This document shows positions 25,614 to 54,682 of a stretch of DNA of 64,000 nt, piece by piece. Numbering within the stretch: the stretch's first letter is position 1; each line of letters starts with the position of its first letter. The translations under genes and the position numbers were made by a program. The notes under the pieces were generated by a model. That model was not told the origin of the DNA and made no database searches. It worked only from the letters and a program-made list of their open reading frames with translations. The stretch is from Burkholderia sp. BCC0322 (lineage in GTDB: Bacteria > Pseudomonadota > Gammaproteobacteria > Burkholderiales > Burkholderiaceae): contig NZ_CADFDU010000010.1 in assembly GCF_902833045.1 (NCBI RefSeq), forward strand, positions 124,001 through 188,000, read 5' to 3'.

Positions 25614-25856
25614 TCAATCGTCATCGATGTGCTTGTCGACCAGATAGCGGCCGCGCGCGACGCCCGCGCGCAGCGCTTCGCTCTCGGTCTTCCAGTCGGA
25701 GCCGTCGGCCGCCGGCACGAGCAGCTCGCGGCGCTCGTCGCCGACATACACCTGCACCTCGTCGCGCCACGTGCCGCTGTCGTTGCGCCGCGCCCACACG
25801 CGTATCTCATGCCCGCGATACGGGTCGCGGATCTGGGCATCCTGTCGATTTTGCAC
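25614..25856 (-). CDS. Small conserved-type protein, sigma-54 controlled
   Basis: Protein of 80 residues starting from GTG with an ideal AGGAGG 5 bases before it. It reads DPYRGHEIRVWARRN, then GTWRDEVQVYVG and SDWKTESEALRAGVARGRYLVD. It is clearly related to the 72-residue protein at 56424-56642 (HEIRV, RN-x-x-G-x-W, W-x-T-x-x-EAL-x-x-G-x-x-x-GR). The fold looks like a small beta-sheet plus helix. Function unknown. A sigma-54 element at 25937-25950 faces it. Confidence 0.7.
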   Translation of the reverse strand: MQNRQDAQIRDPYRGHEIRVWARRNDSGTWRDEVQVYVGDERRELLVPAADGSDWKTESEALRAGVARGRYLVDKHIDDD

Positions 25857-25936
25857 GGCGGCCTCCTGTGCCTGTCTGCGCTGACGAGGCAAAAAATGCG
25901 CGCCGCGTGATCGCCGCGCGCCCGTCGGCCCGGTGC

Positions 25937-50969: not shown

Positions 50970-53315
50970 TCAAACGTCGTGCTTCGTCACGCGCACGATC
51001 TTGTCCGCCAGTTCGCGCACGTCGACCGGCTTGCACAGATAGCCGTCGAACCCGGCCTCGAGCGCCCGGCGTTCGTCGGCCAGGCCCGCATGCGCGGTCA
51101 CGGCCAGCACCCGCACCGCGGGCGGCGCACCGCCGCCGTTCATGCCGGCGTGCCGCAACGCGTCGAGCAGCCAGAAGCCGTCGCCGTCGGGCATCGCGAG
51201 ATCGGACAGCACGACAGTCGGCCGCAGGTCGGCGGCCACCGCGAGCGCTTCGCGGCCCGTCGATGCGATCGCGACGGCCGCGCCGAACGTCGTCAGCGCG
51301 GCGGTGAGGCTCTCGCGCGTCGTCGCATCGTCGTCGACGATCAGGATGCGTTGCGTATCGAGCATCGGCGGGTCGCGATGGTCGTCCGCGCGCGCATTCC
51401 CCCACGCCATCGCACCGATCGGCTGCCAGCCGACCGGTAGCGTCACCGTAAACGTCGCGCCGCGATTGCGGCCTGCACTCTTGGCCGTCACGCCGCCACC
51501 GTGCAGCTCGGCGATATGCCGCACGATCGACAGGCCGAGGCCGAGCCCGCGCCGCGACGACGCGGGCGAATCGTCCGCGCGGCGGAACATGTCGAACACG
51601 TAGGGCAGGAATGCCGGCACGATGCCCTGCCCCGTGTCGGACACGGTCAGCACCACCCGGGTGTCGTCGCGCGCGAGCCCGACCGTCACGCTGCCGCCGG
51701 CCGGCGTGAACTTGAGCGCGTTCGACACGAGGTTCGACAGCATCTGCCGCAATCGCTCGGCATCGCCCGACACGACGCAGGTCGACGCCGCACAGTCGAA
51801 TTCGAGCATGATGCCGGCCGCCGACGCGGCCGTCTGGAACGCGCCGACCGAATCGGAGAACAGCCGCACGACGTCCACCGGCATCGCGTCGAGCTGCAGC
51901 TTGCCGGTCGCGAGCGACGACGCGTCGAGGATGTCTCCGACCATGCGCGTGAGCGAGCGCGCGCTGCGGTCGATCGCATCGATCGCCTGCCGCTGCAGCG
52001 CGTTGTCGCCCGCATTGCGCAGCACCTCGACCCAGCCGTAGATCACGTTCAGCGGCGTGCGCAGTTCGTGCGACACCGTCGCGAGCAATTCGTCCTTCAG
52101 GCGGTTCGATGTCGCGGCCTGGTCGCGCGCCACGCGCGCGCCCTGCAGCGACTGCTGCGCGCGCAAGTCGCGACGGCGCTGCGCACCGGCTTCGCGCAGC
52201 GTCAGCGAAAACGCGACCCAGGCGCGCGCGTCGCCGCGCACCGGGCACGCCGACACGGTCGCACGAAAGCGCCGGCCGTCACGCCGCACGCACAGCAGGT
52301 CGATCGGCCCGACCGCTTCGTGCATGTCGTCGAACGCTTGGGCGAGCGGCTTGCGCTTCAGCCAGCGCATCGCGACCAACGATTCGAATGCACGGCCGCG
52401 CGCATGGTCCTCGTCGTAGCCGAACATGCGCTGCGCGGCCGGGTTCCAGCTGACGATGCGGCCGTCGGTGTCGATGCCGACGATCGCGTCCGGCGACGCG
52501 TCGACCACGGCGCGCTGCAACCGCGACGCATCGGCCTGCGCACGATCCGCACCGGCGTCGCGCAGCAACAGCACGGCGCCGTCGACGTTGCCGTCCGCAT
52601 CGCCGAGCGGCCCGGCGACCTCGACGATCGGCACCCGCTCGCCGCCCTCCGCCTGCAGCCAGTGGCGATCCGACACGACGCCCGCGCCGCCGCGCGCGAG
52701 ATCGAGCGGTGTCGACTGAACGCGCCGGCCGTCGCGATCGACGATCCGCAGCACGTCGCGCGCGGCCTGTCCCGTCGCGTCGTCCGGACGGCAGCCGACG
52801 AGCGCGGCCGCGGCCGCGTTGATGTAGGTGAGCCGCCCGTTCGTGTCGGTGGCGATCACGCCATGCGGCAAGGCCTGCAGCACGGCTTCGAGCCGCCGTC
52901 GGGCGGCCGCTTCGCGGCACAGCGCCGCGTCGTTCGTGAGGCGCGCATGACGCAGCATCGACGCGACCGCGCAGGCCAGCGCGCCGACCAGCACGAACGT
53001 GCCGAGCCGCACGAGCCGCTCGGGCAGCGGCTCCGAATAGGCGGCCGGATCGGACAGGAACAGCGTCCACACGAGCAGGCCGCTGACCACGGTCGAGACG
53101 ACGCCGAACAGGAACGATGTCGCCCATGCGGCGCCCGCGAGCAGCGGGTAGTACAGGACGAGCGGCAGGTTCACGCCGCCGAAGCGGATCGCGAGCGCCT
53201 GCAGCACGGTCGCGATCGCGACCAGCATCACGGCCGTGACGAAGTTGCCTGCACGCATCCGCGACATGTCGAACATCGGTCGCGCTGCTGGCGGCGTGTG
53301 CGGTCGGCGCGGCAT
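50970..53315 (-). CDS. Hybrid sensor histidine kinase (DUF4118-PAS-PAS-HisKA-HATPase-REC)
   Basis: Membrane kinase of 781 residues. Four N-terminal helices (about residues 20-120, DUF4118/KdpD-like), two PAS domains (AVLQALPHGVIATDTNGRL and AVVDASPDAIVGIDTDGRI), the H-box VSHELRTPLN, ATPase boxes (N-box MLSNLVSNALKF, G-box GLGLGLSIVRHI) and a C-terminal receiver with VVLSDLAMPDG. The start overlaps the stop of the activator gene (ATGA), so the pair is cotranslated. Probably senses a membrane or redox signal and phosphorylates the activator. Confidence 0.9.
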   Translation of the reverse strand: MPRRPHTPPAARPMFDMSRMRAGNFVTAVMLVAIATVLQALAIRFGGVNLPLVLYYPLLAGAAWATSFLFGVVSTVVSGLLVWTLFLSDPAAYSEPLPERLVRLGTFVLVGALACAVASMLRHARLTNDAALCREAAARRRLEAVLQALPHGVIATDTNGRLTYINAAAAALVGCRPDDATGQAARDVLRIVDRDGRRVQSTPLDLARGGAGVVSDRHWLQAEGGERVPIVEVAGPLGDADGNVDGAVLLLRDAGADRAQADASRLQRAVVDASPDAIVGIDTDGRIVSWNPAAQRMFGYDEDHARGRAFESLVAMRWLKRKPLAQAFDDMHEAVGPIDLLCVRRDGRRFRATVSACPVRGDARAWVAFSLTLREAGAQRRRDLRAQQSLQGARVARDQAATSNRLKDELLATVSHELRTPLNVIYGWVEVLRNAGDNALQRQAIDAIDRSARSLTRMVGDILDASSLATGKLQLDAMPVDVVRLFSDSVGAFQTAASAAGIMLEFDCAASTCVVSGDAERLRQMLSNLVSNALKFTPAGGSVTVGLARDDTRVVLTVSDTGQGIVPAFLPYVFDMFRRADDSPASSRRGLGLGLSIVRHIAELHGGGVTAKSAGRNRGATFTVTLPVGWQPIGAMAWGNARADDHRDPPMLDTQRILIVDDDATTRESLTAALTTFGAAVAIASTGREALAVAADLRPTVVLSDLAMPDGDGFWLLDALRHAGMNGGGAPPAVRVLAVTAHAGLADERRALEAGFDGYLCKPVDVRELADKIVRVTKHDV

Positions 53316-54682
53316 CAGGATTCCGGCTTGTCCGCTTCGCCTTCGAGCTGCGCGAGCCGGTTGTAGATCGTCTTCAGGCTGACGTCGAGCACCTCGGCCG
53401 CCTGCGCCTTCACGCCACCGCATTGCGCGATCGTGCCGAGGATCAGCCGCCGGTCGACTTCCTCCAGCGGCGTGCCGAACGGCACGGTCACGCGATCCTC
53501 GTGCGAATCGGCCAGGTTCGACAGTTCGTCCATGATCGGCGGCGGCAGCGAATCGATCACGTCGGCATCGCTGAAGATGCTCGCGCGCTGCACGAAGTTG
53601 CGCAGCTCGCGCACGTTGCCCGGCCACGCATAGGTCTTCAGCGCTTCGCGCGCGGCCGGCGCGAAGCGCAGGTTCCGGCCGCTTTCGGCGTTGAACTGCT
53701 GCAGGAACGAATCGGCCAACATCGGGATGTCGTCGCCGCGCTCGCGCAGCGACGGCAGCGGAATCGGGAACACGTTGATCCGGTGGAACAGGTCGGGCCG
53801 CAGCTTGCCGTCGGCCATCGCCGCTTCCGGATCGCGGTTGGTCGCCGCGACGATGCGCACGTCGACGTCGATCTCGCGCGTCGAGCCGAGCCGCGTGACG
53901 CGCCCCGTCTCGAGCACGCGCAGCAGCTTGACCTGCGACTCGAGCGGCATCTCGGTGATCTCGTCGAGAAACAGCGTGCCGCCGTCCGCGCGTTCGAAGA
54001 AGCCCTTGTGCTGGCGCTCCGCGCCCGTGAAGCTGCCGCGGTCGTGGCCGAACATCTCGCTCTCGACGAGGTTCGCGGCAATCGCGCCGCAATTCACCGC
54101 GAGGAACGGGCCGCGGCGGCGCAGGCTCAGGTCGTGCACCGTCTGAGCGGCCAGCTCCTTGCCGGTGCCCGATTCCCCCGTCAGCAGTACCGACGCCTCG
54201 GTGCGCGCGACCCGGCCGATCGCGTCGTAGACCGCCTGCATCGCGGGCGAACTGCCGAGCATCCGGCCGAAGCGGCCGAGCCGCTGCAATTCCGAGCGCA
54301 GCTCGGCGATCTCCTCGTGCAGCGCCGTGGTGCGCGGCACGCGCGCGAAGATGCTGTTCAGCCGCTGCATGTTGAGCGGCTTCACCAGATAGTCGGTCGC
54401 GCCGCGCCGCAACGCGTCGATCGCAGTTTCGAGGCTCGCGTGGCCGGTGGTCAGCACCATTTCGCAGTGCGAACGCTTGGGCAGTGAATCGAACAGGTCC
54501 ATCCCGTTGCCGTCGGGCAGCACGAGATCGCACAGCACGAGATCGGGGGTATGGGTCGTGACGAGCGTGCGCGCTTCTTCGAGCGTCGCGGCCGTGTCGC
54601 AGGCGAGCTGCTGCGTGCGCGCGAGCGCCGCGAGCATCGTCCGCGTGTCGGCGTCATCTTCGACGATCAGGACGTAGGGCAT
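53315..54682 (-). CDS. NtrC-family sigma-54 activator response regulator
   Basis: Activator of 455 residues. Receiver with ED(9)D, Asp52 region LCDLVLPDG and Lys in LVKPLN; AAA+ domain with Walker A GESGTGKE, Walker B GGTLFLDEI and arginine fingers; C-terminal Fis-type helix (AAEVLDVSLKTIYNRLAQLE). The sigma-54 contact loop reads GSFTGA instead of the usual GAFTGA. It should open promoters of sigma-54 polymerase on phosphorylation by the kinase encoded next to it. It is the natural candidate activator for P1-P9. Confidence 0.93.
   Translation of the reverse strand: MPYVLIVEDDADTRTMLAALARTQQLACDTAATLEEARTLVTTHTPDLVLCDLVLPDGNGMDLFDSLPKRSHCEMVLTTGHASLETAIDALRRGATDYLVKPLNMQRLNSIFARVPRTTALHEEIAELRSELQRLGRFGRMLGSSPAMQAVYDAIGRVARTEASVLLTGESGTGKELAAQTVHDLSLRRRGPFLAVNCGAIAANLVESEMFGHDRGSFTGAERQHKGFFERADGGTLFLDEITEMPLESQVKLLRVLETGRVTRLGSTREIDVDVRIVAATNRDPEAAMADGKLRPDLFHRINVFPIPLPSLRERGDDIPMLADSFLQQFNAESGRNLRFAPAAREALKTYAWPGNVRELRNFVQRASIFSDADVIDSLPPPIMDELSNLADSHEDRVTVPFGTPLEEVDRRLILGTIAQCGGVKAQAAEVLDVSLKTIYNRLAQLEGEADKPES

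What the first reader, a model, noticed from the sequence alone, without database searches (positions are those of the whole stretch)
25614..54682. A dedicated sigma-54 regulon: rpoN copy, its own activator and kinase, and nine -24/-12 promoters in 25 kb
An extra rpoN (48626-50086), an NtrC-family activator (53315-54682) and a hybrid kinase (50970-53315) lie together. Nine elements with GG-N10-GC spacing and GGCACG/GGCATG...TTGC-like boxes lie before genes in this region at 25937, 25966, 26553, 44901, 45568, 46044, 46100, 50141 and 50371. Four are full consensus matches, all face a gene, and start points fall 30-170 bases before it. I did not find comparable sites in the intergenic regions I read outside the region. 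I infer a self-contained sigma-54 stress/storage regulon, which I do not know from the literature.
Basis: partly seen in the sequence, partly recalled or inferred. Interest (0 to 1): 0.92.

Follow-up and report, generated by a model that had tools for sequence, protein, structure and literature searches.

The report
Second sigma-54 stress and storage regulon
A spare copy of the sigma factor RpoN in a Burkholderia, together with its own partner activator, appears to switch on a set of sugar-storage and stress-protection genes, which suggests what this long-puzzling second RpoN is for across a bacterial family.

Summary
All nine -24/-12 elements are in the sequence. Shuffles of the window barely separate them from chance, but relatives do. 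In 37 Burkholderia loci around this rpoN, GGCAYG-Nk-TTGC occurs 179 times at k=4 and 4-19 times at other spacings. In one genome 17 of 91 such sites lie in the 85 kb around it. The glgE promoter site is strict in 28 of 34 glgE loci and looser in 5 more; rpoN's own site is in 31 of 36 orthologues.

This rpoN (RpoN2) is an old Burkholderiaceae paralogue. Of 249 family genomes, 124 carry it, and all 124 also carry the window's NtrC-type activator; 43 carry the activator alone, none RpoN2 alone (at the cut-offs used). The 10 of 64 Burkholderia genomes lacking both have on average 26 fewer such sites.

The regulon reaches beyond the reported region and includes rpoN2. It is probably not self-contained: kinase and activator genes have no site, and RpoN1 is likely needed. 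Targets suggest starvation, desiccation or osmotic stress (glgE-treS-glgB-glgX-treZ-malQ-treY; elsewhere otsA, antiporter). Precedents: B. pseudomallei RpoN2 drives katE; Ralstonia rpoN2 is called 'enigmatic'. No transcription was measured here.

The parts
25614..25856 (-). DUF6566 protein (80 aa)
   Evidence: Pfam PF20204 E 1.1e-16; the first scan of this gene, was out of frame
25937..25950 (-). -24/-12-like site GGCACGGCGCATGC before the DUF6566 gene
   Evidence: present; not conserved, 0 of 13 orthologues
25966..25979 (+). -24/-12 site GGCATGCCGCTTGC before a 113-aa gene (26125-26466)
   Evidence: a strict site 640-700 nt before glgE also seen in 15 of the relatives listed
26125..26466 (+). 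113-aa protein of unknown function
   Evidence: GTG start in frame; no Pfam match above cut-off
26485..26492 (+). TGTAAAAA element, candidate enhancer of the glgE promoter, about 65 bp upstream of the GG
   Evidence: TG[TC][AG]AAAA upstream of glgE in 32 of 32 loci; TGTAAAA occurs only twice in the window
26553..26566 (+). -24/-12 site GGCACGTGCGTTGC of the glgE operon
   Evidence: strict site in 28 of 34 glgE loci at -55 to -64; looser GG-N10-GC with TTGC at the same place in 5 of the other 6
26609..30001 (+). glgE, maltosyltransferase
   Evidence: Pfam GlgE_dom_N_S, GLGE_C
30001..33414 (+). treS fused to maltokinase (pep2); ATG at 29998 or 30001
   Evidence: Alpha-amylase, Malt_amylase_C, Mak_N_cap; gene order as annotated in L003 and L004
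33411..35618 (+). glgB, branching enzyme
   Evidence: GlgB_N, CBM_48; synteny
35651..37777 (+). glgX, debranching enzyme
   Evidence: CBM_48, Alpha-amylase; synteny
37774..39645 (+). treZ
   Evidence: Alpha-amylase, DUF3459; synteny
39642..41861 (+). malQ, 4-alpha-glucanotransferase
   Evidence: Glyco_hydro_77 E 7e-105
41858..44632 (+). treY
   Evidence: Alpha-amylase; synteny
44619..44846 (-). 75-aa protein of unknown function
   Evidence: in frame; no Pfam match
44901..44914 (-). -24/-12 site GGCACGGTCCCTGC
   Evidence: site in 11 of 15 orthologues of the 75-aa gene
45061..45375 (-). DUF1488 protein
   Evidence: Pfam PF07369
45382..45517 (-). remnant of a DJ-1/PfpI-family gene (first about 43 residues)
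   Evidence: tblastn 60% over residues 1-43; the intact relative L002:28251-28796 is DJ-1_PfpI
45568..45581 (-). -24/-12 site GGCACGCCGCTTGC
   Evidence: the PfpI gene has a site in 10 loci
45627..45977 (-). DUF3022-like protein
   Evidence: weak Pfam match, E 0.0014, below cut-off
46044..46057 (-). -24/-12 site GGCACGGGTGTTGC
   Evidence: site in 5 of 19 orthologues
46100..46113 (+). -24/-12 site GGCACGCGGTTTGC before a DUF3175 remnant (46163-46264) and the antiporter
   Evidence: DUF3175 gene with a site in 19 loci; remnant
46288..47607 (+). Na+/H+ antiporter
   Evidence: Na_H_Exchanger
47769..48155 (-). DUF3022 protein; followed by DUF1328 (about 48152-48313) and DUF3008 (about 48364-48549) genes, downstream of rpoN2
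   Evidence: Pfam PF11226; order and names from L003 and L004
48626..50086 (-). rpoN2, second sigma-54
   Evidence: Sigma54 AID, CBD and DBD; RpoN box ARRTVTKYR; RpoN2 clade 100/100
50141..50154 (-). -24/-12 site GGCACGGAAACTGC of rpoN2 itself
   Evidence: 31 of 36 orthologues
50225..50236 (-). CTTGTAAAAAAA element, candidate enhancer, about 76 bp upstream of the rpoN2 GG
   Evidence: TTGTAAAA in 31 of 33 rpoN2 promoters; also before rpoN2 in L154, L158, L159, L160 from other genera
50371..50384 (+). -24/-12 site GGCATGCGATTTGC of the CBS gene
   Evidence: 17 of 21 orthologues
50431..50862 (+). CBS-domain protein
   Evidence: CBS, 2 stretches
50970..53315 (-). hybrid histidine kinase (DUF4118, PAS, HisKA, HATPase, receiver)
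   Evidence: no -24/-12 site in 0 of 8 usable orthologues
53315..54682 (-). RR54: receiver, sigma-54 AAA+ (GSFTGA), Fis HTH
   Evidence: with RpoN2 in 54 of 54 Burkholderia and 124 of 124 family genomes
57096..58628 (-). Rieske/FAD oxidoreductase, regulon member outside the reported region
58819..58832 (-). -24/-12 site GGCACGCGGATTGC of the oxidoreductase
   Evidence: 7 of 8 orthologues

Best explanation
This is the core of a sigma-54 regulon run by RpoN2, an old second sigma-54 of the Burkholderiaceae, and by the NtrC-family response regulator beside it (called RR54 here). A stress or starvation signal, sensed by a PAS hybrid kinase, phosphorylates RR54. RR54 binds upstream of -24/-12 promoters and opens them with RNA polymerase carrying RpoN2 (and probably also RpoN1). 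One target is rpoN2 itself, giving positive feedback. Others are the GlgE-TreS-GlgB-GlgX-TreZ-MalQ-TreY operon, which interconverts trehalose, maltose-1-phosphate and alpha-glucan, and a set of small stress-type proteins, oxidoreductases and an antiporter. The purpose is survival of starvation, desiccation or osmotic stress. Shown by comparison: the promoters, their conservation and clustering, rpoN2's own promoter, and the nesting of RpoN2 within RR54 genomes. Inferred: the kinase-RR54 pairing, RR54 binding at the TGTAAAAA element, which sigma-54 serves which promoter, and the signal.
For: Spacing control in 37 rpoN2 loci (two species represented twice): 179 at N4 against 4-19 at other spacings, in 35 of 37 loci. 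Whole genome G002: 17 of 91 sites in 85 kb round rpoN2, expected 0.83 (interval set after seeing the list). G020: 8 of 104 in 35 kb. glgE promoter strict in 28 of 34, looser in 5 more. rpoN2 31 of 36, CBS 17 of 21, oxidoreductase 7 of 8, 75-aa gene 11 of 15. RpoN2 and RR54 both in the same 54 of 64 Burkholderia, both missing in the same 10; on the rpoN1 tree these are 10 separate changes, 10 of 10 shared. Family: 124 of 124 RpoN2 genomes hold RR54; in 39 they are not within 30 kb, e.g. 3.4 Mb apart in G213. RpoN2+ genomes hold 89 strict sites on average, RpoN2- 63; reversed-pattern control 39 and 35. Other genera: -24/-12 sites before otsA (L158; looser in L159), before DUF3175 (L160), and, in a genus with RR54 but no RpoN2, before a TPP enzyme and a glycosyltransferase (L156). 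Papers: B. pseudomallei rpoN2 mutant lacks katE expression at 48-72 h (passages of PMC4745423); Ralstonia rpoN2 has its own -24/-12 site (passages).
Against: No expression data. Window-only shuffles are not significant. Joint absence of RpoN2 and RR54 in Burkholderia may be loss of a whole replicon or cluster, and the drop in sites may partly come with it; site counts were not corrected for kinship. No enhancer common to all targets was found; the TGTAAAAA element is strong at rpoN2 and glgE, seen at a few others, and absent from the CBS, DUF3175, BON, oxidoreductase and otsA promoters. Several sites vary: 5 of 19 for the DUF3022-like gene, 0 of 13 for DUF6566, 0 of 17 for the antiporter. RR54 occurs without RpoN2 in 43 of 249 genomes. 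29 of 64 genomes have no GlgE match.
Confidence: 0.72

Rival explanations
1. The promoters are real sigma-54 promoters but are served by the housekeeping RpoN1 with various activators (NtrC and others); RpoN2 is just one target and the clustering reflects co-location on a small replicon.
For: RpoN1 is in all genomes examined and both paralogues keep the RpoN box. The genus with RR54 but no RpoN2 still has -24/-12 sites before similar genes. Ralstonia rpoN2 expression depends on rpoN1 (passages). No single shared enhancer was found.
Against: Sites crowd round rpoN2 20-fold above the genome level, RpoN2 never occurs without RR54, and genomes without RpoN2 have fewer sites. The B. pseudomallei rpoN2 mutant alone loses katE expression.
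Confidence: 0.2
2. The nine elements are chance matches in GC-rich DNA.
For: Window shuffles and simulated sequence give similar numbers; spacings N0 and N9 give 8 and 9 matches in the window.
Against: Spacing control (179 against 4-19), conservation at a fixed distance before glgE in 28 of 34 loci, genome clustering.
Confidence: 0.03
3. A regulon for carbon or nitrogen overflow storage (glycogen build-up on excess carbon), not for stress.
For: The largest operon is alpha-glucan metabolism, and RpoN is classically linked with nitrogen limitation; Ralstonia rpoN2 is induced in minimal medium.
Against: Companion targets look protective: BON, DJ-1/PfpI, uracil-DNA glycosylase, SDR, CBS; otsA and antiporter operons in other genera; katE in B. 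pseudomallei.
Confidence: 0.25

Closest known systems
Burkholderia pseudomallei RpoN2 (PMC4745423, passages seen)
   Same: Second rpoN on a secondary replicon, not needed for nitrogen use, needed for katE expression at 48-72 h; a predicted RpoN box before katE
   Different: Only katE was tested; no activator, no trehalose/glycogen link and no regulon were described in the passages seen. Orthology with the window's RpoN2 was not tested here (no sequence of that species was fetched by name)
Ralstonia solanacearum rpoN2 (RSp1671; PMC4371752, passages seen)
   Same: Megaplasmid paralogue, 44% identical to RpoN1, -24/-12 site before itself, expressed in minimal medium, depends on rpoN1
   Different: No phenotype found, 'its role remains enigmatic'; no partner activator or targets assigned to it
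Rhodobacter sphaeroides RpoN1/RpoN2 and Xanthomonas RpoN2
   Same: Two sigma-54 paralogues with different jobs and, in Rhodobacter, dedicated activators (reference titles seen, abstract start; details recalled)
   Different: Those paralogues serve flagella or nitrogen fixation, not stress and storage
RpoS (sigma-S) stress regulon of E. coli and Pseudomonas
   Same: Similar kinds of target: katE, trehalose, glycogen, poxB, BON/osmY (recalled)
   Different: Sigma-70 family, no activator ATPase; here sigma-54 promoters
NtrC/NtrB and other NtrC-family two-component activators
   Same: Receiver, AAA+ with GSFTGA, Fis HTH; kinase gene next door
   Different: Best paralogue in genomes that lack RR54 is 45-47% identical; tied to RpoN2

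Membership tests
sigma-54 factor (RpoN) | AID, core-binding and DNA-binding domains and RpoN box | tested here: met
   Pfam, ARRTVTKYR
sigma-54 factor (RpoN) | Belongs to the RpoN2 clade, apart from RpoN1 | tested here: met
   22-row protein tree, 12 RpoN2-like rows one side of a branch, 100/100
NtrC-family bacterial enhancer-binding protein | Receiver, sigma-54 AAA+ with GAFTGA loop, Fis HTH | tested here: met
   (variant GSFTGA)
NtrC-family bacterial enhancer-binding protein | Binds an enhancer 80-200 bp upstream of its promoters | tested here: inconclusive
   TGTAAAAA element at rpoN2, glgE and a few others only; no motif common to all
sigma-54 promoter | GG-N10-GC, GGCACG-N4-TTGC, conserved upstream of the gene | tested here: met
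   met for most sites, not for 25937
sigma-54 promoter | Transcription starts about 12 bases after the GC and needs RpoN plus activator ATPase | not testable with these tools
   needs RNA data
GlgE/trehalose alpha-glucan pathway | glgE, treS/maltokinase, glgB, treY, treZ | tested here: met
   Pfam and synteny
general stress regulon | Induced by several stresses; mutant is stress sensitive | not testable with these tools
   -

The most novel reading that the evidence does not exclude
RpoN2 with RR54 is a sigma-54-based general stress or stationary-phase system of the Burkholderiaceae: an activator-gated counterpart of sigma-S, autocatalytic through rpoN2, that commands trehalose and glycogen cycling, antiporters, DNA repair and redox proteins, and that has evolved on top of an older RR54-RpoN1 circuit by giving it a private sigma factor.
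Probability: 0.4. Interest if true: 0.88.

Novelty: new variant of a known kind. Interest (0 to 1): 0.74.

Why it matters
Sigma-54 paralogues of the Burkholderiaceae have had almost no assigned job: the Ralstonia authors call the role of rpoN2 enigmatic, and B. thailandensis shows little rise of RpoS in stationary phase, whose authors raise RpoN as one candidate (passages of PMC12322963). A defined target list, a partner activator and a candidate enhancer make both questions testable with two gene deletions. It would also show how a sigma factor is added to a two-component circuit: RR54 occurs without RpoN2, RpoN2 was never found without RR54.

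Tried and rejected
Window-only statistics (shuffled 17-mer; recalled weight matrix) did not separate the sites from chance, so comparative tests were used.

Enhancer search: gapped 4-mer dyads and k-mers gave nothing clear. Palindromic dyads gave GCA-N7-TGC in 21 of 24 target groups, but one search showed that it is the reverse of a divergent -24/-12 site (many promoters are back to back). 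With sites masked no common dyad stood out. EM motifs hinted at TTG.AAAA; alignments and counts then gave TGTAAAAA for rpoN2 and glgE and a minority of others. The matrix was built from rpoN2 and glgE examples, so its hits there are circular.

Column identity of the glgE site is 1.0 by selection and is not used as evidence. The interval of 85 kb in G002 was set after seeing the positions.

Mistakes corrected: the rpoN1 tree had 10 rows on the wrong strand and was redone. In one search (used) the DUF6566, 26124 and 44622 queries, and the DUF6566 protein, were out of frame; redone in frame (DUF6566 0 of 13 instead of 0 of 11; 75-aa gene 11 of 15 instead of 7 of 10; DUF6566 now recognised). One search used wrong start coordinates for two genes; corrected. 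One search printed the upstream regions and then failed at the tree (done); one search failed on a print format (done).

Considered and set aside: Rfam (0 hits), tRNA (0), structure prediction (folds are plain from Pfam; not run).

Literature searches with nothing on a RpoN2-trehalose/glycogen regulon in Burkholderia: (open-licence PMC papers only, so subscription papers such as the first H111 sigma-54 study are not covered). Targeted word searches in PMC5552954, PMC5979394, PMC5748707, PMC5491218, PMC3162934 and PMC11046441 found no such link.

Full report
What is there. The window is Burkholderia DNA; the nearest named relative of its RpoN is B. puraquae (95%), and in several named relatives the locus lies on the third replicon, recorded as a plasmid or chromosome 3. 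The window's own assembly is not held. Around the second rpoN are a seven-gene alpha-glucan/trehalose operon (glgE, treS-maltokinase, glgB, glgX, treZ, malQ, treY, order as in L003 and L004), small proteins of unknown function, an antiporter, a CBS protein, a hybrid PAS kinase and an NtrC-type response regulator (RR54), whose start overlaps the kinase's by one base.

Are the sites real? All nine exist; they are 9 of 13 GGCAYG-N4-HTGC matches in the window. Window-only controls are weak. Relatives settle it. In 37 Burkholderia loci around rpoN2 (884 kb; B. arboris and B. stagnalis each appear twice), GGCAYG-Nk-TTGC occurs 179 times at k=4, in 35 loci, and 4 to 19 times at each other k from 0 to 12. 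In the whole genome holding L032 (G002), 17 of 91 matches lie in 85 kb around rpoN2, expected 0.83 (interval set afterwards). In G020, 8 of 104 lie in 35 kb.

Which genes? Upstream of glgE a strict site stands at -55 to -64 in 28 of 34 loci, window included. One of the other six (L001) lacks the gene start; the remaining five have a looser GG-N10-GC with TTGC at the same place. Per orthologue within 260 nt: rpoN2 31 of 36, CBS 17 of 21, Rieske/FAD oxidoreductase 7 of 8, 75-aa gene 11 of 15, DUF3022-like 5 of 19, DUF1488 2 of 14, DUF6566 0 of 13, antiporter 0 of 17, kinase 0 of 8, RR54 0 of 15; other spacings average at most 1.12 per gene. Grouping the first likely reading frame behind every site in 38 sequences (mechanical choice) adds DUF3175 (19 loci), a 100-aa protein (17), DJ-1/PfpI (10), uracil-DNA glycosylase (10), BON (9), SDR (8), a GT4 glycosyltransferase (4), a TPP enzyme (2) and MgtC (2); families. 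In the window the DUF3175 and DJ-1/PfpI genes are cut short behind intact sites. Many promoters are divergent pairs.

Partner. In 64 Burkholderia genomes at least 90% complete, RpoN2 (65% identity or more) is in 54, and RR54 (80% or more) in the same 54; both are missing from the same 10. On an rpoN1 tree the absences are 10 separate changes, all shared. Because the genes often lie near each other on one replicon, loss of a block could explain this. The family is more telling: at E 1e-130 and 1e-138, 124 of 249 genomes have RpoN2 and 167 have RR54; all 124 have RR54. They lie within 30 kb in 85 of 124, on different contigs in 35, and 0.19 to 3.4 Mb apart in 4. More divergent RpoN2 or RR54 copies would be missed by these cut-offs. 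GlgE is in 35 of 64 genomes, all with RpoN2.

Size. RpoN2+ genomes have 89.3 strict sites on average, RpoN2- genomes 63.1; the reversed pattern gives 38.6 and 35.4 (Mann-Whitney P 3.6e-5; per Mb 11.6 against 8.8, P 4e-4, counts). The difference of about 26 is a rough regulon size; kinship and replicon loss are not corrected for.

Age. Of 9 genomes from 8 other genera, all have RpoN1 (70-85% to Burkholderia RpoN1) and 7 also a second copy; the two without it are the two of genus g11. The second copies group with the window's RpoN2, 100/100. In other genera RpoN2, RR54 and a receiver-less sigma-54 activator lie together (L155, L158, L159; the last is partly at the locus end). otsA (trehalose-6-phosphate synthase) is beside them in L158 with a strict site and in L159 with GGCATAGGACTTGC. 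L160 has DUF3175 and an antiporter behind a strict site. In g11, which has RR54 but no RpoN2 match, a TPP enzyme and a glycosyltransferase have strict sites.

Enhancer. rpoN2 promoters share CTTGTAAAAAAGC about 76 bp upstream of the GG (TTGTAAAA in 31 of 33; alignment); glgE promoters share CATGTAAAAACGACAG (TG[TC][AG]AAAA in 32 of 32). TGTAAAA occurs only twice in 64 kb of window, exactly there. The same core stands before rpoN2 in L154, L158, L159 and L160, not as such in L155. By matrix it is also before SDR (5 of 8), an 86-aa gene (5 of 8), MgtC (2 of 2) and the g11 TPP enzyme (2 of 2), but not most other targets. It is the best candidate for the RR54 site; unproven.

Mechanism and status. 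Kinase to RR54 to Esigma54 at these promoters, with rpoN2 feeding back, is inferred from family knowledge and the anatomy. Ralstonia rpoN2 needs rpoN1 for expression, so a start by RpoN1 and amplification by RpoN2 is likely. Stress rather than nitrogen: targets above, and B. pseudomallei RpoN2 driving katE at 48-72 h while being dispensable for amino-acid use (passages).

Novelty. Paralogous sigma-54 factors with separate jobs are known; none of my searches (listed in Tried and rejected) found this regulon or the RR54 partnership. It is a new variant of a known kind, with part of it (katE) already in print.

Noticed in passing
window 46163-46264 and 45389-45517: Two regulon genes are cut short behind intact -24/-12 sites: DUF3175 (first 34 residues) and DJ-1/PfpI (first 43 residues).
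   Followed up: yes
L003:43630-44685; L161 about 7711-8655; L156:10167-11168; L155, L158: A receiver-less sigma-54 activator lies next to and divergent from RR54 in several relatives; the window has no recognisable copy upstream of RR54 (only weak short matches).
   Followed up: partly
G023 contig C2 about 2607150-2607529 (L089): Short rpoN2-like fragments (72-83% identical) in a genome without intact RpoN2: apparently a decayed copy.
   Followed up: no
G001 C7:72354 and C7:517328; G025 C2 and C13; G041, G045: Some genomes carry a second close RR54 copy (72-95% identical).
   Followed up: no
window 25937/25966, 46044/46100; many relatives: Back-to-back divergent -24/-12 promoters, in relatives often with only about 12-30 bp between the two GG pairs.
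   Followed up: partly
L004:25350-29195: Ku and LigD genes sit inside the same neighbourhood in B. multivorans, and a LigD primase near RpoN2-type sites in L160.
   Followed up: no
window 54773 (+), 9850 (-), 62270 (-): Three further GGCAYG-N4-HTGC matches outside the region, not tested for conservation.
   Followed up: no
window 50245-50265: The conserved block upstream of rpoN2 also holds GGCACG-N4-TCGC facing the CBS gene; role unknown.
   Followed up: no
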